From NCBI GenBank assembly GCA_900752115.1, contig CAADUC010000056.1:1-53910 (forward strand): DNA of 53,910 nucleotides, written 5' to 3'. The notes below the pieces were generated by a model. It did no database searches. It was given only the letters and a program-made list of their open reading frames with translations, and was not told where the DNA came from. Both the position numbers and the translations under genes were made by a program. This document shows, in pieces, positions 15,516 to 52,271 of this stretch (position 1 is its first letter; each line of letters opens with the position of its first letter). The stretch comes from Clostridia bacterium. GTDB lineage: Bacteria; Bacillota; Clostridia; Oscillospirales; Acutalibacteraceae.

Positions 15516-15705
15516 GGGAAAGCCTCCTTTTTGAACGGGGCGCAAACGTCCCGTGTTTCCATTTTCTGTCTCTATCAGCGTACCATGAAACGCAGGATTT
15601 GTAAAATATTTTGTTCGGATAAAATTTATAGGGAAAATACAATGAATGACATTGCCGCCGGCGCCGCGAAGCGCGGAATTTTGCCCGGCGGAGGAAGGAG
15701 ATCAC

Positions 15706-16680
15706 ATGAATGCTGAGCTGCTGCGCCGCCTGCGGGAAATCACGGACGAAGAGCGCGCCTTGCTTCAAAAAAAGGACGGCATCCGGCGAGAGCGGTATTC
15801 CTCGGACGGAGAATTTCTGGTGGACAGCGGGCGCGTTATCGGGCCGGGACGTTTGATGGACGTTTCCACGCATACCCGTTTTGCTTATTTTCCACGCCAC
15901 CGCCATAATTATGTGGAAATCATGTATGTTTGTGAGGGAAGCATCACGCACATCCTCGAGGGGGAAAAAACAGTCGTCCTTCATGAGGGGGATCTGCTCT
16001 TTCTCAATCAGTCGTGCCGTCATGAGATTCTCCCGGCCGGGGAGGGCGATATCGGCGTGAACATCATTGTGCTGCCTCAGTTTTTTCATACGGCTTTTGG
16101 AATGCTGGGCGAGGGGAATATCATGAGCGATTTCCTTCTGCACAGCCTCACGCGCGAGTATCCCACCCCTCTTTCGCTGCAATTCCACACCGCCGACCTT
16201 GTCCCCGTGCAGAATCTGATTGAAAATCTCATCTGGTCCGCCGTTTACCGCGATGAGCCGGACGGAAGGCTCAACCAGCTTACGATGGGGCTGCTGCTTC
16301 TGCAGCTGCTGCGCCACACGGAGAGCCTTTCCGCCGAGAGCGTCGGCATGGACAAGTGTGTTCTGCGGGCTCTGCGCTATATTGAGGAGCATTACGCTCT
16401 TGCCAGTCTGGAGGAATTTGCGCTGTCCGAAAGCCGGCCGATGGCGGAGATCAGCCGCGCGATTCACCGTGAAACAGGCTCCACCTTCAAGGAGCTTCTG
16501 CAGAAAAAGCGGTTTCAGGAGGCTGTGGCCATGCTGCAAAACACGTCCATTCCCGTGGCGGACGTCGCCTTTGCCGTGGGCTACAGCAACACGAGCTATT
16601 TTCACCGCCGTTTCCGAGAAATCTACGGAATGAGTCCGCGGGACTGCCGCCTGCACGCGCGGGAGGCCCCCCACAAATAA
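15706..16680 (+). CDS. AraC-family regulator, probable rhamnose regulator
   Basis: A 324-residue protein with an N-terminal cupin sensor (PRHRHNYVEIMYVCEGSITH, EGDLLFLNQSCRHEILP) and a C-terminal AraC double HTH (RPMAEISRAIHRETGSTFKE; VADVAFAVGYSNTSYFHRRF, then GMSPRDCR). The ATG at 15706 has GAGGAAGGAG upstream. It is followed by a terminator and then rhaB. Position makes it the likely L-rhamnose-responsive activator, in the style of RhaR/RhaS (inference). It is divergent from the persulfide reductase gene. Confidence 0.92.
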   Translation: MNAELLRRLREITDEERALLQKKDGIRRERYSSDGEFLVDSGRVIGPGRLMDVSTHTRFAYFPRHRHNYVEIMYVCEGSITHILEGEKTVVLHEGDLLFLNQSCRHEILPAGEGDIGVNIIVLPQFFHTAFGMLGEGNIMSDFLLHSLTREYPTPLSLQFHTADLVPVQNLIENLIWSAVYRDEPDGRLNQLTMGLLLLQLLRHTESLSAESVGMDKCVLRALRYIEEHYALASLEEFALSESRPMAEISRAIHRETGSTFKELLQKKRFQEAVAMLQNTSIPVADVAFAVGYSNTSYFHRRFREIYGMSPRDCRLHAREAPHK

Positions 16681-16715
16681 GGACGCTGTTTTTCACAAGC
16701 AGCGTCCTTTTCTTC
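16681..16715 (+). terminator. Terminator between the AraC gene and rhaB
   Basis: GGACGCTG (16681-16688) pairs with CAGCGTCC (16700-16707) and is followed by TTTTCTTCTTTTCC. It begins directly after the AraC stop, so rhaB is expected to have its own promoter. Confidence 0.8.
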
Positions 16716-16824
16716 TTTTCCGTTTCCGCCTACAATGAAAAGGAAGGGGAGCGGCAAAACGTTCCCGAGCGAAAGCGAACAAGCGGATACGATCCGCCTT
16801 CCCGGGCGGAGAAGGGAGAGGAGT

Positions 16825-18228
16825 ATGGAAACATATTATCTGGCCGTTGATATCGGAGCGTCCAGCGGGAAAATGGAGCTTGGCTGGATGGAGAACGGCA
16901 AGCTTTGCCTGGAAGAGGTCCGGCGCTTCCCCAATGGGGCGAAGAAGAAAAACGGACGTCGCTGCTGGGATACGGACGCGCTGTTTTCCGAGATCAAGGC
17001 AGGACTGCGCCGCTGTGCCGAGATCGGCAAGATTCCGTCGAGTATGGGCGTGGATACCTGGGGCGTCGATTTCGTGCTTTTGGATGAGGACGGAAACCGC
17101 CTCGGTGACGCTGTGGCCTATCGCGATGACCGCACGGCAGGGATGGACGAGCACCTGCGGGAGTTTCTCACCGAAGAGGAGCTCTACGCGCGCACCGGCA
17201 TTCAGAAACAGATTTTCAACACCGTTTATCAGCTGCTCGCGGTGAAGGAACAGGAGCCCGAGCTTCTCAGCCGTGCCGCGCATCTGCTCATGATTCCCGA
17301 CTATCTGCACTATCTTCTGACGGGAAATATCGCGGCGGAGTATACGAACGCGAGTACCACCCAGCTCCTCGACGCGAGGACGCGGAATTGGGATGATGAC
17401 CTTATCAGCCGTCTCGGCCTGCCGCGTCGTCTTTTCTCCGAGCCGAAGCAGCCCGGATTCTGTCTCGGCACGCTGCGTCCGGAGATCCGGGATGAGGTCG
17501 GTTTTGACTGCCGCGTCGTTCTCCCTCCGACCCACGACACCGGTTCCGCCGTGCTGGCCGTTCCCGCCGAGGAGAAAGATTTTCTCTTCCTGAGTTCCGG
17601 CACCTGGTCGCTTTTCGGCATGGAGCGTCCGGAACCGGACTGCTCCGAGGCGAGCCGCCGGGCGAATCTGACGAATGAGGGCGGCTTCGGCGGCACGATC
17701 CGTTACCTCAAAAACATTATGGGCTTGTGGATGCTCCAGTCCATCCGCTCCGAGCTCGGCGATGCGTACAGCTTTGCCCGTTTGAGCGACGAGGCTGAGA
17801 CTGTCGGACGTTTCCCCGCCGAAATTGATGTGGACGATCCCTCCTTCCTGGCTCCGCAGAGCATGATCGAGGCAGTGCGGGAATATTGCGGGCGTACCGG
17901 TCAGCCTGTCCCCCAGACGCCGGGTGAGCTTGCCTCCTGCGTCTACTACGGTCTTGCCGCCCGTTATCGCGACGCGGTCCGTGAGCTCGAATCGCTCACC
18001 GGCGTGTCCTGCCCGAGGCTGTACATTGTCGGAGGCGGCAGCAAGGATGGCTACCTCAACCGCCTGACCGCGTCGGCCATCGGCAAAGAGGTCTCAACCG
18101 GTCCCTCTGAGGGAACGGCGGTGGGAAATCTTCTCTCCCAAATGATCGCAGACGGCATTTTTGCCGATGCTGCCGAAGCCCGCGCCGCTGTGCGCCGCTC
18201 GTTCCCGATCGGCCTGATTCAGCCGTAA
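16825..18228 (+). CDS. rhaB: Rhamnulokinase
   Basis: FGGY kinase of 467 residues that phosphorylates L-rhamnulose at C1. The N-terminal ATPase strand reads YYLAVDIGASSGKMELGWM, the GVDTWGVDFVLLDEDGN motif is characteristic of rhamnulokinase, and PPTHDTGSAVLAVP, FLSSGTWSLFGME and YIVGGGSKDGYLNRL complete the fold. The ATG at 16825 has GGGAGAGGAG upstream. The leader contains a small GCGGAT/ATCCGC hairpin (16783-16797). It is the first gene of rhaBAD; no rhamnose transporter is in the window. Confidence 0.96.
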   Translation: METYYLAVDIGASSGKMELGWMENGKLCLEEVRRFPNGAKKKNGRRCWDTDALFSEIKAGLRRCAEIGKIPSSMGVDTWGVDFVLLDEDGNRLGDAVAYRDDRTAGMDEHLREFLTEEELYARTGIQKQIFNTVYQLLAVKEQEPELLSRAAHLLMIPDYLHYLLTGNIAAEYTNASTTQLLDARTRNWDDDLISRLGLPRRLFSEPKQPGFCLGTLRPEIRDEVGFDCRVVLPPTHDTGSAVLAVPAEEKDFLFLSSGTWSLFGMERPEPDCSEASRRANLTNEGGFGGTIRYLKNIMGLWMLQSIRSELGDAYSFARLSDEAETVGRFPAEIDVDDPSFLAPQSMIEAVREYCGRTGQPVPQTPGELASCVYYGLAARYRDAVRELESLTGVSCPRLYIVGGGSKDGYLNRLTASAIGKEVSTGPSEGTAVGNLLSQMIADGIFADAAEARAAVRRSFPIGLIQP

Positions 18229-18369
18229 AGCGGGGAAGAGCGAATTGAGCAGGAAGAGTAAATTGAGCAAAGAAAGAGCTTCCATTCCGCACGACGCTTC
18301 CTGTCCCAGCGGCAGGCAAGCTCGTACCGGAGAGCGGGGCCTCACAATCAACGACAGGAGGAAACAAAC

Positions 18370-19614
18370 ATGAAATGCTATGACGCAGCGAAAGAACGAT
18401 ACGCCGCCCTCGGCGTCGACACCGAGGAGGCCCTGCGCCGTCTCGCGGACATCAAAATCTCCATGCACTGCTGGCAGGGCGACGACGTGAAGGGCTTTCT
18501 CTTCCGCGACCGCGAACTCTCCGGCGGCATCCAGGCCACGGGTGATTATCCCGGTGCGGCACGCACGCCGGACGAGCTGCGCGCCGATATGGACGAGGCG
18601 TTTTCTCTGATCCCCGGCAAGCACAAGGTCAACCTCCATTCCACCTATGCGGACACCGATGAGAAGATCGACCTGGACGGAATTGAGTCCCGCCATTACG
18701 CCTCCTGGGTACAGTGGGCGAAGGAGCGCGGCCTCGGCCTGGACTTCAACCCCACCTGCTTCTCTCATGAGAAGGCCGAGACGGGCTACACGCTCTCGAG
18801 CGCGGATGAGGGGATCCGCTCCTTCTGGGTGGAGCACTGCCGCCGCAGCCGCCGCGTCGGCGAGTATTTCGGCAGGGAGCTCGGTCAGAAGTGCGTGACG
18901 AACGTCTGGATTCCCGACGGCAGCAAGGATATTCCCGTGGATCGTTACGCGCCGCGCCTGCGCCTGAAGCAGTCCCTCGACGAGGTTTTTGCGGAGAAGC
19001 TTGACCCCGCCGCCAATCTCGACGCTGTGGAGAGCAAGCTTTTCGGCATCGGCTCGGAGAGCTACGTTGTCGGTTCCCACGAGTTTTATATGGGCTACGC
19101 CATGAAAAACAACGTGGCCGTCTGCCTTGATGCGGGGCATTTCCATCCGACGGAGGTCATCAGCAACAAGCTCTCGTCCCTGCTGCTTTTCAGCGACGAG
19201 ATGCTGCTGCATGTTTCCCGACCCGTTCGCTGGGACAGCGACCATGTCGTCATCCTCGACGACGAGCTGCAGGAGATCGCGAACGAGGTGATTCGAGGCG
19301 GTCTGCTTGACCGTGTGCACATCGGTCTGGACTTTTTCGACGCGAGCATCAACCGCGTCGCGGCCTGGGTGATCGGCATGCGCAGTATGCAGAAGGCCCT
19401 GCTGCGCGCTCTCCTCGAGCCTACCGCAAAGATGAAGCAGCTCGAGCTCGACGGCGACTACACGGCCCGCCTTGCCTTCCTGGAGGAGATGAAGGCGATG
19501 CCGTGGCAGGCCGTCTGGGAGGAGTTCTGCGGTCGGGCCAACATGCCCGCCGGTCTGGAATGGCTGACCGAGGTCCGCGCCTACGAAAAGAAAATTTTGT
19601 CTGAGAGGGCCTGA
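18370..19614 (+). CDS. rhaA: L-rhamnose isomerase
   Basis: A 414-residue enzyme converting L-rhamnose to L-rhamnulose with Mn2+. Diagnostic stretches are [19 protein letters not shown] near the N-terminus, [36 protein letters not shown] and [18 protein letters not shown], which contains metal ligands. CAGGAGG lies 8 bases before the ATG. The 141 bases between rhaB and rhaA hold a small AATTGAGCA direct repeat but no terminator. Third step is encoded next. Confidence 0.97.
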
Positions 19615-19631
19615 GAAGGAGGAACCAGAGC

Positions 19632-20447
19632 ATGAACAATATTTTTGAAGCGCCTTTTGTGCGCGAGATGTGCCATATCACCGCCAACATGTACCGCATG
19701 GGCTGGGACGAGAGAAACGGCGGCAACATCAGCTGGATTCTCGAGCCGGAGGCCGTTGAACAGTACCTTGACCCCTCCCATGTGCTGCGCACGCTTCCGC
19801 TGAGCTTTGACGCTTCCGCGCTCGCGGGCCGTTATTTCATCGTGACGGGTACGGGCCGGTATTTCCGCAATGTCGAGCGCTGCCCGCAGGACAACATGGG
19901 CGTGATCCGCATCGCGGAGGACGGCAAAAGCTACGATATCCTCTGGGGCTTCGAGAACGGCGGCCGCCCGACAAGCGAACTGCCCGCCCACTTGATGAAC
20001 CATATCGCCCGTCTTGCCGTCGACCCGGCGCACCGCGTCGTGATGCACTGCCATCCGGCCAACACGCTGGCTATGACCTATGTCCACGACCTCGACGATC
20101 GCGCCTTTACGAAAACGCTGTGGCAAATGTGCACCGAATGCATTGTCGTATTCCCGGAGGGTGTTTCCGTGCTTCCGTGGATGGTCTGCGGCACGAACGC
20201 CATCGGAGAGGCGACGGCGGAGAAAATTCGCGATACCCGCGTGGTCCTCTGGGCGGCCCACGGCATCTTCGGCACCGGCCGCGATATGGACGAGGCCTTT
20301 GGTCTTATCGAGACGGTCGAGAAAGCCGCCGAGATCTACATCAAGATCATGAACACCCCCTGGAAGCAGTCCATCACCGACGCCGAGCTCGCCGCGCTGT
20401 GTGAGGAATTTAAACTCACTCCGCGCGAAGGGTATCTTGATCTCTGA
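19632..20447 (+). CDS. rhaD: Rhamnulose-1-phosphate aldolase
   Basis: Class II aldolase of 271 residues that cleaves L-rhamnulose-1-phosphate to DHAP and L-lactaldehyde. The zinc ligands are the two His of MHCHPANTLAMTYVHD plus the His of LWAAHGIFGTG. The N-terminal GWDERNGGNISWIL loop is characteristic. GAAGGAGG precedes the ATG, 17 bases after rhaA. Last gene of the operon. No lactaldehyde reductase follows; the aldo/keto reductase at 36.8 kb is a remote possibility. Confidence 0.96.
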   Translation: MNNIFEAPFVREMCHITANMYRMGWDERNGGNISWILEPEAVEQYLDPSHVLRTLPLSFDASALAGRYFIVTGTGRYFRNVERCPQDNMGVIRIAEDGKSYDILWGFENGGRPTSELPAHLMNHIARLAVDPAHRVVMHCHPANTLAMTYVHDLDDRAFTKTLWQMCTECIVVFPEGVSVLPWMVCGTNAIGEATAEKIRDTRVVLWAAHGIFGTGRDMDEAFGLIETVEKAAEIYIKIMNTPWKQSITDAELAALCEEFKLTPREGYLDL

Positions 20448-28385: not shown

Positions 28386-29801
28386 TCAGTCCGGGAAATG
28401 GCGGTGGCAGCTGATGCCGAGGTACTTTGCGGCCTCCTCGAGAATGTCGGCCACATGACCGCGCACAAAGCAGACATGGTGCTCAAAACCGTTCTCGCAC
28501 AGGTAACGCAGAAGCTTCTGTAATCCCGGCACGCGGCAATTCGCGACGCCGCCTTTTGTCGGGATTTTTTCAGCCTCAAACGAGCCCTCGCCCACGTACA
28601 TTTTGAGCTCGCCCCGCGCGTCGTCGGTCGAAAAGCGAACAAAAGTCATCGGACCGGGAGCTACCTGTCCCTTGCACGCGCCGAAGGTGCGCTCGCGGCC
28701 AAGTGTGCTGCCGAGTACGTCAAGGCATTCGATCTCGATCTGAGGCGCGGCAAAGAAGCTCTTCGGAAAGTTTGAACAGTGCAGCGACACACAGCAGTCA
28801 CGGTCGTCGCGGATGTTGTTGTTCCAGTCCATGAGAGCGGGGGCGCTCTGCGCGGCGAGCTGTGCCGCAAGCATGGAGACCGCGCCCGTCACGTCGCTCT
28901 CGCAGGCGCTGGGCAATCCCTTTTCGCCCATCATGCTCATCGCAAGGCAGGCGGCGCAGCCATAGTTGTTCTCAAGGCTGTCCCAGCACTGCACGGTGGA
29001 GGCGCTGCAGTCGAGCTTCCTCACAAAATCCTCCAACGCGAGGCACAGCCGCGCCTGCCGCGTGATTTTATAGTCCTCGATGGATGCCGGAATGGAACCG
29101 TACGCGCGGATCTCGGCTTCCTTCGCCCGCACGGCTTCCCCGTCCGTCATCGATTCCGCCGCCGCGATCACTTCACTGAGGTCGACCGTCTGCACGGCAA
29201 TGCCGTGCTTTTGCAGGATTTTCTCGGAGAAACGAACAGTGTTGAACGCCACGGGGCGTGCGCCGAGCATTGCGATCCGTGCGCCGCGCAGGCCGTTGAC
29301 CACGCGGCAGACCCCGGCGAAGCGGAGCAAATCGGCCTCGAACTCCGGACCGTCGATCGGACAGGTGTGCAGCTGCGTAAGGCTGAACGGGATGCCGCGC
29401 TGGTACAGGTTGTTGCACAGGCTCAGCTTGCCGCAGAACGCGTCGCGGCGGTTCGCCATGTCGAGCTTGTCGAAGTCGTCGTCGCATGCCTGCACGAGGA
29501 CGGGGACGTTCAGCCCGGCCAGCGAGATGGCCTCGGCCACGCCCAGCTCTTCGCCGAAGTTCGGCAGGATGCAGAGAATGCCGTCAATCTCGTCCGCGTG
29601 AGCCCGGAAGAGCTTTGCGCATGTCTTTGCTTCCTCATATGTCAGCACCGCACCGAATTCGGTATCCTCCTCGGAGACCATCACACAGCCGAAGCCGAGC
29701 CGGTTGAGCAGTGCGGTGATTTTTTCACGCGCCGTTTTGACAAGGTGAGACGGGAAAAAGCTTCGCGTGGTCACGATGACGCCGAAGGTTTGCTTTGTCA
29801 T
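28386..29801 (-). CDS. L-fucose-isomerase-family sugar isomerase, candidate D-apiose isomerase
   Basis: A 471-residue aldose/ketose isomerase of the FucI/AraA fold (COG2407 type). Candidate Mn-binding residues are E301 in SACESDVTG, D325 in LMDWNNN and H441/H442 in FEHHVCF. The N-terminal half is the Rossmann-like substrate domain (FGVIVTTRSFFPSHLV). It is the last gene of an operon with an FGGY kinase and a split transketolase. That set is the one described for D-apiose: isomerase to apulose, kinase, then apulose-4-phosphate transketolase. GGGAGG precedes the ATG. Fucose, arabinose or sulfo-sugar isomerase are alternatives. Family assignment is firm; the apiose assignment is an inference from context. 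Confidence 0.85.
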   Translation of the reverse strand: MTKQTFGVIVTTRSFFPSHLVKTAREKITALLNRLGFGCVMVSEEDTEFGAVLTYEEAKTCAKLFRAHADEIDGILCILPNFGEELGVAEAISLAGLNVPVLVQACDDDFDKLDMANRRDAFCGKLSLCNNLYQRGIPFSLTQLHTCPIDGPEFEADLLRFAGVCRVVNGLRGARIAMLGARPVAFNTVRFSEKILQKHGIAVQTVDLSEVIAAAESMTDGEAVRAKEAEIRAYGSIPASIEDYKITRQARLCLALEDFVRKLDCSASTVQCWDSLENNYGCAACLAMSMMGEKGLPSACESDVTGAVSMLAAQLAAQSAPALMDWNNNIRDDRDCCVSLHCSNFPKSFFAAPQIEIECLDVLGSTLGRERTFGACKGQVAPGPMTFVRFSTDDARGELKMYVGEGSFEAEKIPTKGGVANCRVPGLQKLLRYLCENGFEHHVCFVRGHVADILEEAAKYLGISCHRHFPD

Positions 29802-30138
29802 TTTTTCTTTCCTCCCAATCGATTTGTTTTGCCGTCAGAAAGCCGCCCATCCGTCTGCGCGTCAGCTGCCGGAAAACGGGATCGCGCGGCTATCAGGCTG
29901 TTATCAGAAAAATATGGTTTCTTACAGTGCGGGCAGTGCAGGATGCTTCCGGTACGTTCTCGGGAGCAGAAGGCTGCGCGCTGCGGAACGCAATGCTTCA
30001 ACGAAGCTCTCGTTCTCGGTGATCCGCACAGTGATCAGCACAGGAAACAGGGGGGCACCGTGAGCTCCTCACAACGAGCCGGATCAGCCTATTTTCGCTG
30101 TTCCGCACAGGAAACAGGGGCTTCAGCAGAGGGCCAAA
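29802..30138. other. 337-bp gap inside the transketolase-kinase-isomerase operon
   Basis: A 16-base direct repeat GCACAGGAAACAGGGG occurs at 30038-30053 and 30105-30120. On the minus strand a 67-codon open frame (30001-29798, TTG start, no good ribosome binding site) contains LHCPHCKKPYF, a zinc-ribbon-like half motif, and ends at the isomerase start. I do not call it a gene. No clear terminator or promoter was found, so it is unresolved whether the isomerase is transcribed through from the kinase. Confidence 0.4.
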
Positions 30139-31614
30139 CTACTTTCCGGCCACGGCAGCAACAGCCTCTCGCCAGCCCCGCAGAAGCTTGCCGCGTTCTG
30201 TGTTCTCCATCTCCGGCAGAATTTCGCGCTCGTGCAGACCCGCAAAGATCTGCTCTTCGGAGACAAGTCCCGCGCCGATCGCGGCGCAGTATGCCGCCCC
30301 GGCTCCGGAGAGTTCCTCCGTTTCGCTTACGAGCAGGGGCATGCCGAGCAGACCGGCTTGAAAGCGCATCAGGAAGCGGTCGCGCGTCGGGCCGCCGTCG
30401 GCGCACAGACGGGAGAGCGGTCTTCCCGCCGCTTCCGTTACGCTCTCCACCACATCTCGGATCTGGTAGGCAATGCACTCCTCCGCCGCGCGCACAAGAT
30501 GAGCGGGGCGTGTCGAGCGGTCCATCCCAATGATGGCCGCGCGTGCCTTATCGTTGAAATACGGCGCGCCCAGACCGCTGAAAGCCGGTACAAGATAGAC
30601 GCCGCCGTTGCCGCTCAGCGAGGCGGCGATGCTTCCCGACAGAGACGGCTTTTCAAGCAGCCCCATCTCCACGAGCCAGGTGATCACTGCGCCGGTGTAA
30701 TTGATGTTGCCCTCTACACAGTAGACGGCTTTGCCGCGGCGTCCCCAGGCGAGGCTTGTGACTACGCCCGCGCTCTCGCGGGGACGGACGCCGCCAGCGT
30801 TCATCATGATCGAGCTGCCCGTGCCGTACGTCACCTTGGCTGTGTACGGTTCGACACAGCGGTGGGCAAACAGGGCCGCGTGACTGTCTCCGAGCACGCC
30901 GTGGATTGGCACGGGGCGCGGCAGCAGGCCCCCGATGGTCGTCTCGCCGAAGCAGTCGTCGCTCATGCGGACTTCCGGCAGAAAGCCTTCCCGCAGGCCG
31001 TATGCTTCGAGCAGTTCCGTATCCCAGCGCAGGGTGTCGAGATTCAGCAGGCCGGTGCGGCTTGCGTTCGAGCAGTCGGTGGCGAAAACACGGCCTTCCG
31101 TCAGGCGGAAGACGAGATAGCTGTCCACTGTGCCGAGGCAGAGTGTGTTTTTCTTCGCCGATCCTGCCGTATTCGGCTCATGGCGCAGCATCCAGGCGTA
31201 TTTCGGCGCGCTGAAATACGGCGAGAGCGTCAGGCCCGTTTTCTGCCGCACGCGCGGCTCCCAGCCCTGCTCCCGCAGCCCGGAGGCAATGGAAGCCGCC
31301 CGCCCGCACTGCCAGACAATCGCCGGACAGAGCAGTTCGCCGGTTTCCCGGTTCCAACAGCAGGCTGTTTCGCGCTGGTTGGAAAGCCCCAGAACGGCGA
31401 CATCGGCGGGGGGGAGGCCGGCCGCGGCGAGCGCTTCGCGCGCCGCTCTCTGCACGCTCTCCCAGATCTCCGCGAGGTCGTGGCTGACCCAGCCCTCGCC
31501 GCTGACAAGCTGGCGGTGCGGTACGTCCGCCCGGCCGAGCAGCGCGCCGTCAAAACTCCATACAAGCCCCTTTGTGCCCTGTGTGCTCTGATCGATCGAG
31601 AGAATGACGCTCAT
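30139..31614 (-). CDS. FGGY-family carbohydrate kinase, candidate apulose kinase
   Basis: A 491-residue FGGY kinase. It starts ILSIDQSTQGTKGLVW and has glycerol-kinase-like motifs (LGLSNQRETACCWNRETGE, IVWQCGR, LTLSPYFSAPKYAWML), the nucleotide motif VTYGTGSSIMMNAGG and the C-terminal FGGY signature region (YLVPAFSGLGAPYFND; LCADGGPTRDRFLMRFQAGLLG). It overlaps the transketolase C-subunit stop by 4 bases (ATGA), so it acts with that enzyme. A kinase feeding a transketolase needs a ketose phosphate, which favours xylulose- or apulose-type substrates over glycerol. A GGAGG-like site precedes the ATG at 31614. The substrate is inferred. Confidence 0.9.
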   Translation of the reverse strand: MSVILSIDQSTQGTKGLVWSFDGALLGRADVPHRQLVSGEGWVSHDLAEIWESVQRAAREALAAAGLPPADVAVLGLSNQRETACCWNRETGELLCPAIVWQCGRAASIASGLREQGWEPRVRQKTGLTLSPYFSAPKYAWMLRHEPNTAGSAKKNTLCLGTVDSYLVFRLTEGRVFATDCSNASRTGLLNLDTLRWDTELLEAYGLREGFLPEVRMSDDCFGETTIGGLLPRPVPIHGVLGDSHAALFAHRCVEPYTAKVTYGTGSSIMMNAGGVRPRESAGVVTSLAWGRRGKAVYCVEGNINYTGAVITWLVEMGLLEKPSLSGSIAASLSGNGGVYLVPAFSGLGAPYFNDKARAAIIGMDRSTRPAHLVRAAEECIAYQIRDVVESVTEAAGRPLSRLCADGGPTRDRFLMRFQAGLLGMPLLVSETEELSGAGAAYCAAIGAGLVSEEQIFAGLHEREILPEMENTERGKLLRGWREAVAAVAGK

Positions 31615-32561
31615 GCTCGCCGTTCCTCCTTCTGTGCAATCACCCCGCGCGCAGCGGCGGCGATGTGTTCCGCCGTCAGACCGTAGTGGCGGAAGAGGTC
31701 GCCGGACTTCCCGACAAGCGTCTCCTCGTCCGGGAAGCCAAGGACGCGCACCGGGACGGGACAACCGGCGCACACGGTGTGTGTGACGAGCTCGCCGAGT
31801 CCGCCGTTGACGCTGTGCTCCTCAACGGTAACGATGGCTCCTGTCTCCCGCGCGGCGCGGCGGACCGCGTCCTCATCGGCGGGCTTGAGGAAGAAGAAGT
31901 CGAGCACGCGGGCGCTGATTCCTTCGCGTTCGAGCAGGAAAGCGGCTTCTTTCGCGTGCCAAACCATCTCGCCGCAGGCGATCAGCGTCACGTCGGTGCC
32001 TTCCCGGACGGTTTTCGCTTTTCCCATCTCGAACGACTCATTTTCTCCGTATACGGCCTCAACGTCGCCGCGTCCCATACGCACGTAGGCGGGGCCGTGA
32101 TGAGAGACGAGGTAATCCGCCACCGCGCGCGCCTGTACGGCGTCCGAGGGGGCGATCACCTCAAGGTTCGGCAGGCTGCGCATGGAGGCGAAGTCGTGCA
32201 GGCTGGTGTGCGTGCAGCCGAGCGGGCCGTAGCTTACGCCCGCCGAGACGCCGATTATTTTGACATCCGTGCAGTTGTACGCCACGTCGACTTTCACCTG
32301 CTCATACGCGCGAGCCGCCAGAAAGCAGGCCGGTCCGCAGGCGAAAACCGTTTTTCCGGTCAGCGCCAGCCCTGCCGCCACCGCGACGGCATTCTGCTCC
32401 GCGATGCCGAGTTCGACGAACTGCTCCGGAAGCTCCTCGGCCATTGCGCCGATGGTGACGCTGCCCCGGCTGTCCGTGCACACCGCCCAAATCCGCGGGT
32501 CCTGCCGGGCCAGCTCCAGAATTCTCGCGCAGATTGCCTTTCTGCAAGATACCTTTGCCAT
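31611..32561 (-). CDS. Transketolase, C-terminal subunit
   Basis: A 316-residue split transketolase half with the pyrimidine-binding (PYR) domain. The catalytic Glu that activates TPP lies in FVELGIAEQNAVAVAAGLAL. The substrate loop is GVSYGPLGCTHTSLHDFASM, and the C-terminal transketolase domain begins near TDVTLIACGEMVWHA. It starts 3 bases after its N-terminal partner stops and has GAGGAGG before the ATG. Together the pair equals one complete enzyme that moves a two-carbon unit between sugar phosphates. In the apiose pathway such a pair (AptA/AptB) splits apulose-4-phosphate. Confidence 0.93.
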   Translation of the reverse strand: MAKVSCRKAICARILELARQDPRIWAVCTDSRGSVTIGAMAEELPEQFVELGIAEQNAVAVAAGLALTGKTVFACGPACFLAARAYEQVKVDVAYNCTDVKIIGVSAGVSYGPLGCTHTSLHDFASMRSLPNLEVIAPSDAVQARAVADYLVSHHGPAYVRMGRGDVEAVYGENESFEMGKAKTVREGTDVTLIACGEMVWHAKEAAFLLEREGISARVLDFFFLKPADEDAVRRAARETGAIVTVEEHSVNGGLGELVTHTVCAGCPVPVRVLGFPDEETLVGKSGDLFRHYGLTAEHIAAAARGVIAQKEERRA

Positions 32562-32564
32562 GGA

Positions 32565-33383
32565 TCAGCCCTCCTCTGCGGCCCGGAGCAGATCGGCCCG
32601 GATCGCCTCATACTGTGCGTCGTTCGGAATCAGGTGGTGCCATTCGGCCTTGTTCTCCATGATGGGGGAGCCTTTGCCCTTGACGGTGTCGAGAATTATC
32701 GCTGTCGGTTTGCCCGGCACGCGTGTCAGGAAAGCTTCTTTCATCGCCGCGTAATCGTGGCCGGAGCAGCCGGCGACGTTCCAGCCGAAGACGGCGTATC
32801 GTGCGCCGAGATCGCCGAGCGGCATGACCTCCTCCGTCGTCCCGCTGATCTGCAGATGATTGCGATCGACGATGGCTGTCAGGTTGTCGAGTTTATACTT
32901 CGCCGCGAACATGACGGCCTCCCAGACGCTGCCTTCCGCCTGCTCGCCGTCGCCCATGAGGGTATAGATGTGGCCGGGCGTTTTGTCCCGCTTTTTGCCG
33001 AGCGCCATGCCGCAGGCTACGGAGAATCCATGCCCAAGCGCGCCCGTAGCCACGTCAATACCCTCAAGTCCGTGCGTTGGGTGCTCGGCGAGCTTAGTGC
33101 CGAACTGCGCATACGTCTGAAGCCGTTCCTTCGGGAAAAAGCCGCAGTCCGCGAGAACGGTGTAAAGCGCCTCGGCGCAATGCCCCTTGCTCAGGATAAA
33201 ATGGTCGGCGTCCGGCGCGTTTTCCTTCCGCTTTTCCACGTCCATGACCTCGTAGAACAGGGTGACGAGGGCGTCCATACACGACATATCGCCGCCGATG
33301 TGTCCGCTTCCTGTGCGGTACACCATCTCCAGAACTTCCAGCCGCCTTTCGTATGCGATCTGTCTGAGTGCTTTTGTGTCCAT
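32565..33383 (-). CDS. Transketolase, N-terminal subunit
   Basis: A 272-residue TPP-binding half. The ThDP motif is LMGDGEQAEGSVWEAVMFAA followed by NLTAIVDRNHLQISG; substrate His residues appear in TGSGHIGGDMS and LSKGHCAEALY. It is first in the operon, with GGAG before the ATG and a strong promoter about 70 bases upstream. The split arrangement is natural for this family and is not a frameshift, because each half has its own ribosome binding site. General pentose-phosphate use remains possible, but the kinase and isomerase partners argue for a dedicated sugar. Confidence 0.93.
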   Translation of the reverse strand: MDTKALRQIAYERRLEVLEMVYRTGSGHIGGDMSCMDALVTLFYEVMDVEKRKENAPDADHFILSKGHCAEALYTVLADCGFFPKERLQTYAQFGTKLAEHPTHGLEGIDVATGALGHGFSVACGMALGKKRDKTPGHIYTLMGDGEQAEGSVWEAVMFAAKYKLDNLTAIVDRNHLQISGTTEEVMPLGDLGARYAVFGWNVAGCSGHDYAAMKEAFLTRVPGKPTAIILDTVKGKGSPIMENKAEWHHLIPNDAQYEAIRADLLRAAEEG

Positions 33384-33458
33384 AAGCCGTCTCCTTTTTT
33401 CAGCGAAGGGGAACCGTGTCCGTCTGCTCGCATAGGTGGGCCCCTTTTTCTGCCTCCC

Positions 33459-33487
33459 ATTATAAATATAATATTATAAAAGATCAA
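33459..33487 (-). promoter_or_regulatory. Promoter of the transketolase-kinase-isomerase operon
   Basis: TTGATC (33487-33482) and TATAAT (33464-33459) with a 17-base spacer on the minus strand. A 22-base perfect palindrome lies just upstream of the -35 element. Confidence 0.7.
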
Positions 33488-33493
33488 TACGTA

Positions 33494-33515
33494 TTTATAT
33501 AAAATTTTATATAAA
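33494..33515. promoter_or_regulatory. 22-bp perfect palindrome upstream of the operon promoter
   Basis: TTTATATAAAA followed by its exact reverse complement, centred at 33504/33505 and 7 bases upstream of the -35 box. It may be an UP-like element or an operator, although it lacks the central CG usual for LacI-family operators. Confidence 0.4.
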
Positions 33516-33925
33516 TATTTTAAATTAAAATTTAGAGAAGATAGAGGCCTTGTTCCGGAGATGAGGAAAAAGATGAGCTCGCTCTTCGGGAAAGACGTAA
33601 GAATTTTCTGGATGGTTTCTGGATGGAAAGAAGGATTCCTCTGTGTGGTTCTTCGTCCGGAAGTGTGTGAGAATAGCATAAAAACGCGTTGTGAAGGGAG
33701 AAGCTGAATAAGATGAACCAAGTGAAAGCCTTCTTTGAATTCTCTCTCTCTTCTATCCGCCCGTATCGCGGAAATCCGGTCGGTAAATGTTTAAAGTCTC
33801 AATAAAATGTCCCGAACCTCTGGTTTTTGATTTGCAAACAAAAAGGATACATGTACGGCCTAATGGTGAAAACAAAATATGATTTAAAATGTTATAAATA
33901 GTTTTATTAAAATTTCCGCTTGAAC
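33516..33925. other. Intergenic region between divergent sugar operons
   Basis: No gene identified. It is AT-rich with a short direct repeat (TTCTGGATGG-like, about 33605-33625). Ribosome-binding-like GGGAG near 33696 is not followed by a convincing frame. It carries the upstream region of the LacI gene. Confidence 0.45.
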
Positions 33926-33954
33926 TTTACAAGGCGTTTTTTTCATGCTAAGAT
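33926..33954 (+). promoter_or_regulatory. Promoter of the LacI-family gene
   Basis: TTTACA (33926-33931) and TAAGAT (33949-33954) with a 17-base spacer; predicted start about 45 bases before the ATG. Confidence 0.6.
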
Positions 33955-34005
33955 GAGGCTGTGTGAATGTGCTGTGTCAGAGCACAGGCAAAGGGGGACT
34001 GATGG

Positions 34006-35013
34006 ATGAAACCAGGTTTGCGTGAAATCAGCGAGGCCACCGGTTTTTGTACCGCCACCGTGTCCAACGCCCTGAATCGAAAAAAGGGCGTGAATCCGGA
34101 GACGGCGGCGCAGATTTTCGCAGCGGCAAAACGACTCGGATATTTTTCCAAAGCGAAGCTTGAGGCGGTGCGTTTTGTACAGTACAAAAGCAGCGGTCTT
34201 GTTGTGACGGACACGCCCTTTTTCGCCGCGCTCGCGCACGGTATTGAGCAGGAGTGCCGTGCCCTCGGACTGGAAGCCATTCTCACGACGATCAGCCGGT
34301 CGGAGCCCGATTTTGACGATCGACTCGGGCAGCTTCTCGGAGACGCGTCTTGCGGTGTCATCCTGCTGGCGACGGAGGCCTCAGAGGAAGAGATGAAGCT
34401 CTTTGCACAGGCGATCGCTCCGCTTTTGATCCTCGATAATTGGCCGGAAAGCTCTTCCTCGAGCGCTCTTTTGATCAGCAACACGGACAGTGCCTGCCAC
34501 GCCGTTGAGCATCTGATCGAAAAGGGGCACAGGGAGATCGGCTACCTCAGGAGCGATGTGCGCATTAAAAACTTCTTTTACCGGCAGGAGGGCTACCGGC
34601 GCGCGCTGGCTCTGCACGGCCTCGTGCCGCAGGAGCATTTCGAGGTCCCCCTTCCGCCGGATACCGCCGGAGCATGGGCGGCCATGAACGCGTGGCTTGC
34701 GGCAAAACCGGAGCTTCCCACCGCTTTTTTTGCGGACAACGACAACATTGCCCTCGGCGCGCTGAAGGCGTTTGAGGAGAATGGTATCCGCGTCCCGGAG
34801 GATGTCTCCGTTGTCGGCTTCGACGATATGCCGTTCGCTGAGTTTTCCACCCCGCCTCTGACCACCGTGCGCGTCGCCAAGGAGGAGATGGGCCGTCTTG
34901 CCGTACGGATTCTTGTGGGCCGCGCGCACGCGGAGTTGTCCTCCGCCACGAAGACGCAGATCTGCACCACGCTGGTGGAGCGCGGCAGCGTCTGCCCGCC
35001 GCGCTGCGGGTAA
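34006..35013 (+). CDS. LacI-family transcriptional regulator
   Basis: A 335-residue repressor. The N-terminal HTH is LREISEATGFCTATVSNALN with the hinge helix near ETAAQIFAAAKRLGYFSKAK. The sugar-binding domain has VEHLIEKGHREIGYL, FADNDNIALGALKAFEENG and VVGFDDMPFAEFSTPPLTTV. GGGGGACTG precedes the ATG; a nearby ATG at 34003 is out of frame. It lies between the divergent transketolase operon and the glycoside hydrolase, so it is the natural regulator of one or both, sensing the sugar they release (inference). Confidence 0.94.
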   Translation: MKPGLREISEATGFCTATVSNALNRKKGVNPETAAQIFAAAKRLGYFSKAKLEAVRFVQYKSSGLVVTDTPFFAALAHGIEQECRALGLEAILTTISRSEPDFDDRLGQLLGDASCGVILLATEASEEEMKLFAQAIAPLLILDNWPESSSSSALLISNTDSACHAVEHLIEKGHREIGYLRSDVRIKNFFYRQEGYRRALALHGLVPQEHFEVPLPPDTAGAWAAMNAWLAAKPELPTAFFADNDNIALGALKAFEENGIRVPEDVSVVGFDDMPFAEFSTPPLTTVRVAKEEMGRLAVRILVGRAHAELSSATKTQICTTLVERGSVCPPRCG

Positions 35014-35114
35014 AGAACGTCTGCCGGATAGGTAAGGAGTGCCTGTCCGGCATTCGTAAAAGGGGTTTTCAGGTGTCCAACGGAGCCTTTTTATGATTGA
35101 GGGAGGAAACATAA

Positions 35115-36626
35115 ATGCTGACCTATCCAAAGACCGCAGAGCGCTGGGGCGTCTTTGAGGCGTCCCTGCCGGGCAAAACGGAGGGAAATCCCTTCACCGA
35201 TTACACAATGGAAGCTACATTCGTATCCCGGGGAGAGACGGTGCACGTTAACGGTTTCTATGACGGGGACGGTATGTACCGTGTCCGCTTCATGCCGTCC
35301 TTCCCTGGGGAGTATACCTTTACCGTCTCGGGAAGCTTTTCCGACGAGGGGGAACAGGCCGGTTTGTTCACCGTTCTGCCCGCCTCCGCGGGCAACCATG
35401 GTCCGGTAAGGGCGAGGGGGTTCCATTTCGAGTACGAGGACGGCACGCCGTACTATCCCATGGGAACGACGGCGTACGTGTGGGAGCTGCAAAGAGAGGA
35501 ACTGCGCCGCGGGACGCTTGAAGAACTTGCAAAGGGGTACTTCAACAAGATCCGCTTCTGCGTATTTCCGAAGCATTATCTCTATAATCTTCATGACCCC
35601 GTCTCTTTCCCGTATGAGGGTACGCCCTGCAAAATCGATCCCAACGACAGGGAACTCGGTTTCCGCATGGAGGTGCAGCCGGGGAACGACTGGGACTTCA
35701 CGCGTCCGAACCCTGCTCACTTCCGTTTGGTGGAGGAGTCCATCCGCGCGCTCGGGGCGATCGGCGTTGAGGCCGATCTGATTGTGATGCATCCGTATGA
35801 CCGCTGGGGCTTTTCCCACATGTCGGCGGAGCAGGATGACCTGTACTGGCGCTATGTGATTGCCCGCTTTGCCGCTTTCCGCAATGTCTGGTGGAGCCTC
35901 GCGAATGAGTATGATATCCTCGCTGACAAGACGATTGCCGACTGGGAACGTTACGCGCAGATTCTCGTCGACGAGGATCCGTACCGTCATCTCCGCAGCG
36001 TCCATAACTGCCTGACGATGTATGATTATACCAGGCCGTGGATTACCCACTGTTCCATCCAGCGCACGGATCTCTACAAATGCGCCGAGTATACCGACGA
36101 CTACCGTACCCGCTACGGCAAACCGGTTGTGCTCGATGAAATTGCCTACGAGGGCGACATTGATCAGGGCTGGGGCAACATCAGCGGGCAGGAGCTGGTC
36201 CGCCGCTTCTGGGAGGCCGCACTGCGCGGCGGCTACGCGACGCACGGTGAAACCTTCGACCGGGGCGACAATGTCCTCTGGTGGAGCCACGGCGGAAAAC
36301 TGCACGGCGAGAGTCCGGCGCGCATCCGTTTTTTGCGGCAGATTCTTGAGCAGACGCCGGGAGCCGGTCTGCGCCGTATGAACGGCCAGTGGGACGAGCT
36401 TGCCGCGACGGTTGACACAATGGGCGACAGCGGCTATTATCTTTATTATTACGGCTTCCTGCGTCCCAGCCGCCGAACGTTCTCTTTTCCGGAGAATGTG
36501 AAGCTTGAGGCAGAGATCATCGATACCTGGAATATGACTGTCACCCCTGCCGGGACGCATACGGGCCGCTTCACGCTCGAGCTGCCGCGCCGGGAGTATA
36601 TGGCTGTCCGTCTGCGCCGCGTCTGA
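35115..36626 (+). CDS. Clan GH-A-like glycoside hydrolase (DUF5060/DUF4038-type), candidate apiosidase
   Basis: A 503-residue protein without signal peptide, so probably cytoplasmic. Residues 1-90 form a beta-sandwich of the DUF5060 kind (FTDYTMEATFVSRG, MYRVRFMPSFPGEYTFTVSG). Residues 100-420 form a (beta/alpha)8 barrel of the DUF4038/GH140 kind (YPMGTTAYVW, KIRFCVFPKHY). The acid/base is likely E265 in WWSLANEYDI and the nucleophile E342 in VLDEIAYEG. A C-terminal beta domain (420-503) ends it. GH140 includes the rhamnogalacturonan-II apiosidase. The adjacent transketolase/kinase/isomerase set would consume apiose. The ATG has GGGAGG upstream. Other related barrels act on different glycosides, so specificity is an inference. 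Confidence 0.82.
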   Translation: MLTYPKTAERWGVFEASLPGKTEGNPFTDYTMEATFVSRGETVHVNGFYDGDGMYRVRFMPSFPGEYTFTVSGSFSDEGEQAGLFTVLPASAGNHGPVRARGFHFEYEDGTPYYPMGTTAYVWELQREELRRGTLEELAKGYFNKIRFCVFPKHYLYNLHDPVSFPYEGTPCKIDPNDRELGFRMEVQPGNDWDFTRPNPAHFRLVEESIRALGAIGVEADLIVMHPYDRWGFSHMSAEQDDLYWRYVIARFAAFRNVWWSLANEYDILADKTIADWERYAQILVDEDPYRHLRSVHNCLTMYDYTRPWITHCSIQRTDLYKCAEYTDDYRTRYGKPVVLDEIAYEGDIDQGWGNISGQELVRRFWEAALRGGYATHGETFDRGDNVLWWSHGGKLHGESPARIRFLRQILEQTPGAGLRRMNGQWDELAATVDTMGDSGYYLYYYGFLRPSRRTFSFPENVKLEAEIIDTWNMTVTPAGTHTGRFTLELPRREYMAVRLRRV

Positions 36627-36832: not shown

Positions 36833-37804
36833 ATGAAGGAAAAACAGCTGCATCGGGATCTTTTGCCCGTGACGCCCGTCTGCCTCGGAACGGCGCAATT
36901 TGGAACTTCGCTGAGTGAGAAACAGGCAGGGGATATTCTTGACGCGTATACAGGCAGCGGCGGTAATTTTCTCGATACGGCCAACTGCTACGGCCGCTGG
37001 CTGCCGCACGGAGAAAACGTCAGCGAGCAAATCCTGGGGCAATGGCTGCGCCGTCACGGCGGAAGGCACAGTCTTGTGATCTCCACCAAGGGAGGTCACC
37101 CGCCGTTTGACGCGATGACGAAAAGCCGTCTGCATGAAAACGAGCTGCGGCACGATCTTGAGAGCAGTCTTACTGCGCTCGGCACGGACTACGTGGATTT
37201 CTACTGGCTCCACCGCGACGACATTTCTATCCCGGTGGGGGAGCTCGTCGAGCGGCTCGAAGGATTCCGCCGCGAGGGAAAGCTCCTCGCCTACGGCGTT
37301 TCAAATTGGTCGGCTGCCCGTGTGCGCGAAGCGGCCGACTACGCCGCTTCCCACGGCTGCAGGGGCTTTGGCGGCGTGCAGAATCAGTGGAGCCTGGCCC
37401 GCGTCGTGCCGGAGCGCATCGCTGATCGGACGCTTGTCTGTATGGATGAGGCGCTGTACAAGCTGCTGTGCGAGCGTGAGGATTCGCTGTGTACGCTTGC
37501 TTTCTCCGCGATGGGGAAAGGTTATTTTACAAAAGCCGCGGCCGGGACGCTGCGGGAGGGCGCGCTCATGGAGTACCGCTGTGCGCTCAACGAGCGGCGG
37601 CTTGAGGCACTGCGGCGTCTTTCCGAAGACAGACACGTGCCGATTGCCTCGCTTGTTCTCGCGTGGATGAGCGCCAAGCCGTTTGCTGCTGTCCCGATCG
37701 CCGCCGTGTCCTCTGCTGCCCAGCTCGGGGATTTGGCTGCGGCCTTCGATCTCTCCCTGAATCCGGAGGAAGTTTCCCTCCTCGACGCCGGGGAGGAATA
37801 CTAA
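36833..37804 (+). CDS. Aldo/keto reductase
   Basis: A 323-residue AKR barrel. The catalytic tetrad is visible: Asp in NFLDTANCYGR with Tyr, Lys in VISTKGGHP, and His in YWLHRDDISIP. The NADP end motif is FAAVPIAAVSSAAQL. It resembles the YajO/Tas/L-glyceraldehyde-3-phosphate reductase group. GGGAGG precedes the ATG. It has its own transcript start region after a terminator but sits directly after the candidate apiosidase. A role in sugar aldehyde reduction or sugar 3-oxidation chemistry is possible; no substrate can be assigned. It ends 23 bases before gatC. Confidence 0.93.
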   Translation: MKEKQLHRDLLPVTPVCLGTAQFGTSLSEKQAGDILDAYTGSGGNFLDTANCYGRWLPHGENVSEQILGQWLRRHGGRHSLVISTKGGHPPFDAMTKSRLHENELRHDLESSLTALGTDYVDFYWLHRDDISIPVGELVERLEGFRREGKLLAYGVSNWSAARVREAADYAASHGCRGFGGVQNQWSLARVVPERIADRTLVCMDEALYKLLCEREDSLCTLAFSAMGKGYFTKAAAGTLREGALMEYRCALNERRLEALRRLSEDRHVPIASLVLAWMSAKPFAAVPIAAVSSAAQLGDLAAAFDLSLNPEEVSLLDAGEEY

Positions 37805-49266: not shown

Positions 49267-49712
49267 AAACGCAGCCGCTCAATGAGATGAAGCTTGTATT
49301 CCCCAGCAGTTCAGCGAATGAGTCATTCGCCCGCGCGGCGGTTTCCGCCTTTGCCGCTCAGCTGGATCCTACCGTGGACGAGCTCAGCGATATTCGTACC
49401 GCCGTTTCCGAGGCCGTGACCAATTGCATTGTACATGCTTACCGCGACACCATCGGCGAAATTACCCTTACGGTCCGCCTGTTTGAAGGGAGGCGTCTGA
49501 TCATTCAGGTGAAGGATAAGGGGTGCGGAATAGAGGATGTGGAAAAGGCGATGGAACCGCTCTTTACGACCGGAGGCGAGGAACGCGCCGGTCTCGGCTT
49601 CGCTGTGATGGAGAGCTTCATGAACCGCCTGCACGTCACGTCCCGTCCGGGAAAAGGAACGTCCGTCACGATGGAAAAACGGCTGTCAGGCCGTTCTGTC
49701 CATGGACGCTGA
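49263..49712 (+). CDS. spoIIAB: Anti-sigma-F factor and serine kinase SpoIIAB
   Basis: A 149-residue GHKL ATPase that holds sigma-F inactive and phosphorylates SpoIIAA. The N box is AVSEAVTNCIVHAY, the G1 box VKDKGCGIEDV and the G2 box EERAGLGFAVMESF. It starts inside the end of spoIIAA and overlaps sigF by 11 bases, the conserved tricistronic layout. Confidence 0.95.
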   Translation: MKTQPLNEMKLVFPSSSANESFARAAVSAFAAQLDPTVDELSDIRTAVSEAVTNCIVHAYRDTIGEITLTVRLFEGRRLIIQVKDKGCGIEDVEKAMEPLFTTGGEERAGLGFAVMESFMNRLHVTSRPGKGTSVTMEKRLSGRSVHGR

Positions 49713-51973: not shown

Positions 51974-52271
51974 GCTGCATTCCTCCCCCTTCTCAAATAA
52001 TAATAAGACAATTTATTGCATCTGTAAAGGCGCGCCCACAGAAGCTTCCATCCGGTCCATTACTCCCTGCTATACTGGAGGCACAATCCCGGGCCGGAAA
52101 AAACAGCGGTCGCCGCGTCCGGCGGGCATCCGTGAAAGGTGCCGCTCGTGAAAAACATTCGGCTGCGGATGGGACTTCTCTGCGAAAACCGTGTTTGCCG
52201 GCTTTTGCGGCAGGACCAGGCGCGGGAAGTCCGAAACAGAGCGTTTGAAGAAAAGAAGGGGGAACTGTTGT

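What the first reader, a model, noticed from the sequence alone, without database searches (positions are those of the whole stretch)
28386..36626. Candidate D-apiose utilisation locus: isomerase, FGGY kinase, split transketolase, LacI regulator and GH140-like hydrolase
Seen: a minus-strand operon of split transketolase subunits (32565-33383, 31611-32561), an FGGY kinase overlapping by 4 bases (30139-31614) and a fucose-isomerase-family enzyme (28386-29801), divergent from a LacI regulator and a DUF5060/DUF4038-type hydrolase. Known: in characterised bacteria D-apiose is isomerised to apulose, phosphorylated by an FGGY kinase and split by a two-subunit apulose-4-phosphate transketolase, and GH140 contains an apiosidase. 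Inference: this locus frees and consumes apiose from apiin-like glycosides or rhamnogalacturonan II. A LacI-controlled version with its own hydrolase in a spore-former would be new to me.
Basis: partly seen in the sequence, partly recalled or inferred. Interest (0 to 1): 0.8.

Follow-up and report, generated by a model that had tools for sequence, protein, structure and literature searches.

The report
LacI-controlled D-apiose utilisation gene cluster
A bacterium carries a gene set that very probably breaks down apiose, a branched plant sugar, by a route already known from other bacteria; the one uncertain and fresher part is the enzyme that would cut apiose off plant molecules.

Summary
The genes are there as described: a minus-strand set (split transketolase, FGGY kinase, fucose-isomerase-family enzyme) facing a LacI regulator and a DUF5060/PF13204/DUF5605 hydrolase. 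Comparative evidence supports the known D-apiose transketolase pathway. Both transketolase subunits lie with the isomerase in 34 of 39 Bacillota/Bacteroidota loci (the 5 misses are contigs under 10 kb) and in 0 of 10 loci of other phyla. The kinase groups with E. coli AplK (99/99), apart from 14 glycerol-kinase-type sequences, and shares AplK's pocket motifs. The N transketolase subunit groups with AptA (100/99). Three of 8 close enterobacterial AptA plasmid records hold a homologous isomerase (46-47%), and at least 5 of 49 loci hold a GH140-type gene. The window's hydrolase is not a canonical GH140: it has Glu where apiosidase has Asp, another C-terminal domain, and a GH5 mannanase as nearest characterised fold. 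A LacI gene with this hydrolase recurs in 4 of 39 loci and in Monoglobus pectinilyticus, so the arrangement is not unique. Substrate and activities are inferred. Verdict: a new member of a known kind, with an unproven, possibly new, apiosidase type.

The parts
28386..29801 (-). Fucose/arabinose-isomerase-family enzyme, proposed D-apiose isomerase (ApsI-like)
30139..31614 (-). FGGY kinase, proposed D-apulose kinase (AplK-like)
   Evidence: 37% to E. coli SE15 AplK; clade with AplK 99/99 apart from glycerol kinases; GDSH and GTGSS signature
31611..32561 (-). Transketolase C-terminal subunit (AptB-like)
   Evidence: PF02779/PF02780; 42% to E. coli AptB; no tree was built for this subunit
32565..33383 (-). 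Transketolase N-terminal, thiamine-diphosphate-binding subunit (AptA-like)
   Evidence: PF00456; 39% to E. coli AptA; clade with AptA 100/99 apart from the other split transketolases in the tree
33459..33487 (-). Promoter-like site TTGATC-17-TATAAT of the catabolic operon
   Evidence: consensus match 10 of 12; 5 such sites in the 9.7-kb stretch against a mean of 2.3 in shuffles; not evidence of function
33492..33517 (.). Perfect 26-bp palindrome next to the promoter-like site; candidate LacI operator
   Evidence: 13+13 nt, 100% complementary; a half-arm this long arose in 11 of 20000 mononucleotide shuffles and 3 of 2000 neighbour-preserving shuffles of the local 90% AT stretch; the same sequence was not seen upstream of the relatives looked at
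33926..33954 (+). Promoter-like site TTTACA-17-TAAGAT before the LacI gene
   Evidence: consensus match 9 of 12
34006..35013 (+). LacI-family regulator, proposed repressor of the locus
   Evidence: PF13377 145.3, PF00532 72.4, LacI HTH 26.7 bits against a 27 cut-off
35115..36626 (+). DUF5060 / PF13204 / DUF5605 glycoside hydrolase, proposed intracellular apiosidase

Best explanation
This is a D-apiose utilisation locus using the transketolase route. Proposed steps: (1) an apioside enters the cell through a transporter encoded elsewhere; (2) the hydrolase releases D-apiose; (3) the isomerase turns apiose into apulose; (4) the kinase makes apulose 4-phosphate; (5) the two-subunit transketolase moves carbons 1-2 of apulose 4-phosphate to glyceraldehyde 3-phosphate, giving xylulose 5-phosphate and dihydroxyacetone phosphate. 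The LacI protein represses the divergent promoters until the sugar or a derivative binds. Gene identities, order, family placement and kinase signature are shown by computation. Substrate, reactions, regulation and the hydrolase's specificity are inferred; the reaction scheme is recalled from Carter et al. 2018, which I could not read.
For: In 34 of 39 Bacillota/Bacteroidota loci both transketolase subunits (170 bits or more) lie with the isomerase, and in 31 of 39 an AplK-like kinase (230 bits or more) lies there too. Kinase tree: 38 cassette kinases including E. coli AplK form one clade (99/99); Ser replaces GlpK's Phe in 38 of 38, and GDSH occurs in 37 of 38, against GDQQ and Phe in 14 of 14 glycerol-kinase-type sequences. 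Transketolase N tree: 41 cassette rows including AptA, 100/99. E. coli strains with this AplK/AptA/AptB cluster grow on D-apiose (PMC13001218, passages read). Of 8 plasmid records with AptA at 60% identity or more, 3 (Rahnella, Sodalis, Klebsiella) hold a homologous isomerase, which lies beside aptA-aptB and a kinase. A GH140-type gene lies in at least 5 of 49 loci. Each of the 13 genomes with a transketolase of the cassette also holds a further transketolase, and 13 of 14 hold a separate glycerol-kinase-type gene.
Against: No activity data exist. No biochemically tested ApsI sequence was in hand, so the isomerase step rests on synteny, and 5 of the 8 close AptA plasmid records showed no such isomerase (in the one of them that I opened, Erwinia, neither isomerase nor kinase is annotated beside the pair). 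Homologues of the isomerase at 45-51% identity in 10 loci of other phyla lie without the transketolase pair or an AplK-like kinase, so the isomerase family alone is not diagnostic. In the Acetanaerobacterium genome (G014) isomerase and a kinase fragment are present, but of its three split transketolase hits two fall outside the AptA clade and one (38%) was not placed (the contig ends nearby). No transporter lies beside the window's genes. The PDB match of the N subunit is best to a general split transketolase (217 bits), although the tree separates cassette and other split transketolases.
Confidence: 0.85

Rival explanations
1. Same chemistry, different sugar: the set acts on another aldose of the fucose/arabinose-isomerase range (D-arabinose, L-fucose or another branched pentose), and resemblance to apiose clusters reflects shared ancestry only.
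For: The isomerase fold is that of L-arabinose and L-fucose isomerases. Isomerase homologues in 10 loci of other phyla lack the transketolase pair. Monoglobus combines the same transketolase and kinase types with a very distant isomerase, 27%.
Against: Kinase and transketolase fall in clades that include the enzymes of the E. coli cluster that goes with growth on D-apiose. GH140-type genes sit in at least 5 of 49 loci. D-arabinose or fucose catabolism needs no dedicated transketolase (general knowledge).
Confidence: 0.09
2. General glycerol and pentose-phosphate metabolism: the kinase is a glycerol kinase and the split transketolase is the cell's housekeeping one.
For: The kinase scores 491.5 bits with TIGR01311 and 419.9 bits with a Thermus glycerol kinase. 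The transketolase halves match the general split transketolase of Carboxydothermus best in the PDB.
Against: The kinase is under the TIGR01311 cut-off of 590.35 and outside the glycerol kinases in the tree, with changed pocket motifs. Relatives carry separate glycerol-kinase-type genes (13 of 14) and further transketolases. The E. coli AplK also scores high but under cut-off with TIGR01311.
Confidence: 0.03
3. Sulfo-transketolase pathway for sulfoquinovose.
For: The isomerase's only NCBIfam hit is sulfoquinovose isomerase SftI, and sulfo-TK pathways use a transketolase without a kinase step (recalled).
Against: 96.7 bits against a cut-off of 700. A kinase is present, and no sulfoquinovosidase or sulfonate gene appears among the 8 consecutive genes assigned to families.
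Confidence: 0.01
4. The catabolic set is for apiose, but the adjacent hydrolase cuts a different linkage (for example a mannoside) and is not an apiosidase.
Against: Family members lie in the isomerase locus in 7 of 39 loci plus Monoglobus, in L004 between the two transketolase genes. The protein passes the PF13204 cut-off, and Glu at this position occurs in 17.3% of PF13204 members (PMC4032388, passages read).
Confidence: 0.45

Closest known systems
D-apiose transketolase pathway (ApsI, AplK, AptA, AptB) of Pectobacterium and other bacteria (Carter et al. 2018, recalled; cluster comparison in PMC13001218, passages read)
   Same: Same enzyme types; kinase and N transketolase subunit fall in the clades of E. 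coli AplK and AptA; a homologous isomerase beside AptA-type genes in Rahnella, Sodalis and Klebsiella plasmid records
   Different: LacI regulator where those records annotate a 'sugar-binding transcriptional regulator', no adjacent ribose-type ABC transporter, and a linked hydrolase gene; gene order transketolase-kinase-isomerase rather than transketolase-isomerase-kinase
Monoglobus pectinilyticus cluster (L115: LacI, isomerase, transketolase pair, 'glycerol kinase', DUF5060 protein)
   Same: Same set including LacI and the DUF5060 hydrolase; kinase and transketolase in the same clades
   Different: Isomerase only 27% identical and far out in the tree; genes in another order, followed by an SGNH hydrolase gene
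GH140 apiosidases (BT_1012: 3kzs, 5msy; 8t9w)
   Different: Glu in place of the catalytic Asp187, DUF5605 in place of PF12904, an added N-terminal DUF5060 domain, 15-16% identity
BVU_0362 of Bacteroides vulgatus (4n0r), putative glycoside hydrolase
   Different: The PDB title names no activity, so it does not settle the substrate

Membership tests
D-apiose transketolase pathway locus | Kinase of the AplK type, not glycerol kinase | tested here: met
   Clade with E. coli AplK 99/99; GDSH and GTGSS signature as in AplK
D-apiose transketolase pathway locus | Dedicated split transketolase of the AptA/AptB type | tested here: met
   N subunit in the AptA clade, 100/99 (the program called the bootstrap values rough); C subunit 42% to AptB by BLASTP only
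D-apiose transketolase pathway locus | D-apiose isomerase ApsI | tested here: inconclusive
   Homologue (46-47%) beside AptA-type genes in 3 of 8 close plasmid records, but no sequence named ApsI was retrieved and the enterobacterial rows' place in the tree is open
D-apiose transketolase pathway locus | Catalytic activities and growth on D-apiose | not testable with these tools
   Needs enzymes or the organism
GH140 apiosidase | PF13204 catalytic domain | tested here: met
   54.8 bits against 26.5, but far below the 281-343 bits of three GH140-type neighbours
GH140 apiosidase | Catalytic Asp (Asp187 of BT_1012) with Glu284 | tested here: not met
   Glu265 stands at the Asp position in the window protein; Asp in 5 of 5 GH140-type neighbours; the second Glu is shared (residues from PMC4032388)
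GH140 apiosidase | PF12904 C-terminal domain (usual, not universal) | tested here: not met
   DUF5605 instead; [quoted passage not shown]
Glycerol kinase GlpK | TIGR01311 curated cut-off and place among GlpK sequences | tested here: not met
   491.5 against 590.35; outside the GlpK-type rows in the tree
Sulfoquinovose isomerase SftI / sulfo-transketolase pathway | NF048012 cut-off | tested here: not met
   96.7 against 700
L-fucose/L-arabinose isomerase superfamily | Fold and C-terminal domain | tested here: met

The most novel reading that the evidence does not exclude
The DUF5060/PF13204/DUF5605 proteins linked to apiose cassettes form a second class of apioside hydrolase, distinct from GH140, working inside the cell with a Glu/Glu pair on imported apiosides. 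The family is large (7951 of the 8000 candidates scored in one capped search matched), so an assigned activity would annotate many genes.
Probability: 0.4. Interest if true: 0.5.

Novelty: new member of a known kind. Interest (0 to 1): 0.35.

Why it matters
It extends a recognisable apiose cassette across Bacillota and Bacteroidota, many of them metagenome-assembled genomes by their titles. It gives a simple sequence rule (GDSH plus GTG-x-S against GDQQ plus GTG-x-F) that separates proposed apulose kinases from glycerol kinases, as which one of them is annotated (Monoglobus). It also names a concrete, testable candidate for a non-GH140 apiosidase. If confirmed, apiose from pectin RG-II, flavonoid apiosides or saponins could be assigned to specific bacteria from genome data.

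Tried and rejected
Housekeeping transketolase plus glycerol kinase: rejected by trees, signature and gene content. Sulfo-transketolase: rejected by the isomerase cut-off and the presence of a kinase. A shared LacI operator across relatives: scans for 16-bp palindromes with at most one mismatched pair, in upstream stretches of L003, L007, L009, L011, L014, L017, L018 and L024, gave palindromes in some but no common site by eye. The 337-bp kinase-isomerase gap as a structured RNA: no Rfam match at gathering score in the window, fold z-score 0.59. The DNA of the locus has no near match in 72,556 plasmid records. PDB sequence search for the isomerase, single and by profile: no hit. My initial recollection that ApsI is a xylose-isomerase-type barrel was dropped. 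Literature: 'apulose' gave 0 papers; 'apiose' with 'GH140' gave 0; six apiose-catabolism terms gave only PMC13001218 as a relevant one among the 25 listed of 809. The primary paper (Carter et al. 2018) is not held.

Rows left out of trees: kinase tree used 55 of 65 candidate rows; the ten left out were L048 (a cassette kinase, omitted from my list by oversight), L080, L109, L078, L045, L044, L030, L050 and two of L049. Transketolase tree used 57 of 58; L048 was again omitted. Isomerase tree: L026, L047 and L048 are absent, as their frames are cut by a contig end or broken. Gene calling in the loci was mechanical and put wrong-strand frames in several loci, so the counts of GH140-type and nucleoside-hydrolase-type neighbours are lower bounds. 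An earlier count said 14 of 14 genomes hold a separate glycerol kinase; the table shows 13 of 14 (G001 has none), and the report uses that. In a second set of 11 genomes at least 9 show one; G017 showed none and G024 is unclear (motifs not checked there). L069 entered the kinase tree labelled as a glycerol-kinase paralogue and proved to lie in a second cassette; I count it with the cassette kinases.
Full report
What is there. The transketolase C gene and the kinase gene overlap by four bases, the two transketolase genes are three bases apart, and 337 bp separate kinase from isomerase. The opposite strand carries LacI and the hydrolase. Promoter-like sites stand on both sides of the 622-bp divergent gap (5 sites in 9.7 kb against 2.3 expected), and a perfect 26-bp palindrome sits beside the one for the catabolic genes. 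No whole genome is held for the window.

Context across genomes. One scan for the isomerase gave 49 loci. Counting matches of at least 170 bits (transketolase) and 230 bits (kinase), both transketolase subunits lie with it in 34 of 39 Bacillota/Bacteroidota loci, an AplK-like kinase in 33, and all three in 31; the five without the pair are contigs of 4.9-9.6 kb. L014, L015 and L047 have the pair without a kinase in the locus. In 10 loci of other phyla the isomerase (45-51% identical) has neither, so the isomerase family alone does not define apiose use.

Anchor to a tested system. PMC13001218 (passages read) names aplK, aptA and aptB of E. coli SE15, says E. coli lacks apsI and has two oxidoreductases instead, and reports growth on D-apiose of strains with the cluster and not of K-12. 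I fetched that cluster (L001). The window's proteins are 37%, 39% and 42% identical to AplK, AptA and AptB. Of the 8 plasmid records with AptA at 60% identity or more, three (Rahnella, Sodalis, one Klebsiella; AptA 78-79%) hold, next to it, a fucose-isomerase-family gene 46-47% identical to the window's, with a kinase and a ribose-type ABC transporter. The other five showed no such isomerase in the plasmid search, among them three with AptA at 89-91%; in the Erwinia record neither isomerase nor kinase is annotated beside the pair. The inference that this gene is ApsI is mine.

Kinase. Its first impression is glycerol kinase: 491.5 bits with TIGR01311, cut-off 590.35, but AplK scores 495.3 with the same model. 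In a 55-row tree rooted on three distant kinases, the 38 cassette kinases, including AplK and one of a second cassette in genome G004, form a clade (99/99) apart from 14 glycerol-kinase-type rows (13 from cassette genomes plus E. coli GlpK), which do not themselves form one clade. The position of GlpK's Phe in GTGCF is Ser in 38 of 38 cassette kinases and Phe in 14 of 14 glycerol kinases; the other motif is GDSH in 37 of 38 (GDSQ in L026) and GDQQ in 14 of 14. That this Phe lines the glycerol pocket is recalled. A wider pocket fits apulose, whose end carries two CH2OH groups on one carbon, like glycerol (inference).

Transketolase. In a 57-row tree of the N subunit, 41 cassette rows including AptA form a clade (100/99); 10 rows of other split transketolases, one further copy in L026 and five fused ones fall outside. 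The program said its bootstrap values were rough. Of 14 genomes searched, the 13 with a transketolase of the cassette hold at least one more (the further one of G008 has a stop inside its frame). The exception against my reading is G014 (Acetanaerobacterium): isomerase and a kinase fragment are present, but of its three split transketolase hits two fall outside the AptA clade and the third was not placed; the contig ends nearby. No tree was built for the C subunit.

GH140 neighbours. At least five of 49 loci (L017, L019, L021, L022, L045) hold a GH140-type gene; the three tested score 281-343 bits with PF13204, and the one compared with the PDB matches BT_1012 at 421.8 bits. Together with the AplK/AptA clades this is the strongest evidence for the substrate.

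Comparison and novelty. The pathway is known. LacI of at least 150 bits occurs in 12 of 39 loci, with the hydrolase in 4 of them (L003, L011, L017, L027) and in Monoglobus. The window is a new member of a known kind; the hydrolase is the open point. My literature searches covered only the held open-access library, so a published description elsewhere is not excluded.

Noticed in passing
15646-20447: L-rhamnose operon: AraC-type regulator (by eye), rhaB (538.7 bits, cut-off 527.95), rhaA (731.6, cut-off 584.95) and rhaD (421.3, cut-off 400.95). RG-II contains both rhamnose and apiose (recalled), so the two loci may serve the same diet, but rhamnose use is common.
   Followed up: partly
51098-53777: A GH4 alpha-galactosidase-type gene (NF011657 584.7 bits, cut-off 486) divergent from an AraC-type regulator.
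   Followed up: no
49702-50355: Sporulation-type sigma factor, SigF/SigG-like but below NCBIfam cut-offs; the only check made of the 'spore-former' label.
   Followed up: no
L009:4518-6617, L048:4386-6425, L024:1978-2907, L002:11632-14007, L032:9099-10559, L038:18346-19935, L042:18413-19945: Nucleoside-hydrolase-like or Sde182-type genes (9 proteins in two BLAST clusters; 3 checked singly with Pfam; further matches) lie in 7 of the apiose-cassette loci, up to about 8 kb from the isomerase. Enzymes of this kind cut furanosides (recalled), so some could be apiofuranosidases.
   Followed up: partly
flanks of cassette loci: Among 91 flanking proteins scanned, taken from up to 29 loci, esterases recur (BD-FAE 5, Esterase 4, COesterase 3), with single GH127, GH95, GH36, GH1 and pectinesterase genes: a plant cell-wall setting.
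   Followed up: partly
L027:3981-5867: In this clostridial locus one 628-aa ORF covers both transketolase halves: the split pair occurs as a single fused frame.
   Followed up: no
L115:5589-6989: Monoglobus has an isomerase only 27% identical to the window's beside the same kinase and transketolase types, suggesting replacement of the isomerase between subfamilies.
   Followed up: partly
L133:4627-7834: Genome G004 holds a second transketolase-kinase set with ribose-type ABC transporter genes (BLASTP labels) but no isomerase beside it.
   Followed up: no
36833-37804: Aldo/keto reductase gene downstream of the hydrolase on the same strand (PF00248 172.7 bits); no NCBIfam cut-off reached, relation to the locus unknown.
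   Followed up: no
29802-30138: The kinase-isomerase gap is unusually long and holds three imperfect 26-nt direct repeats, with no RNA family and no unusual fold.
   Followed up: partly
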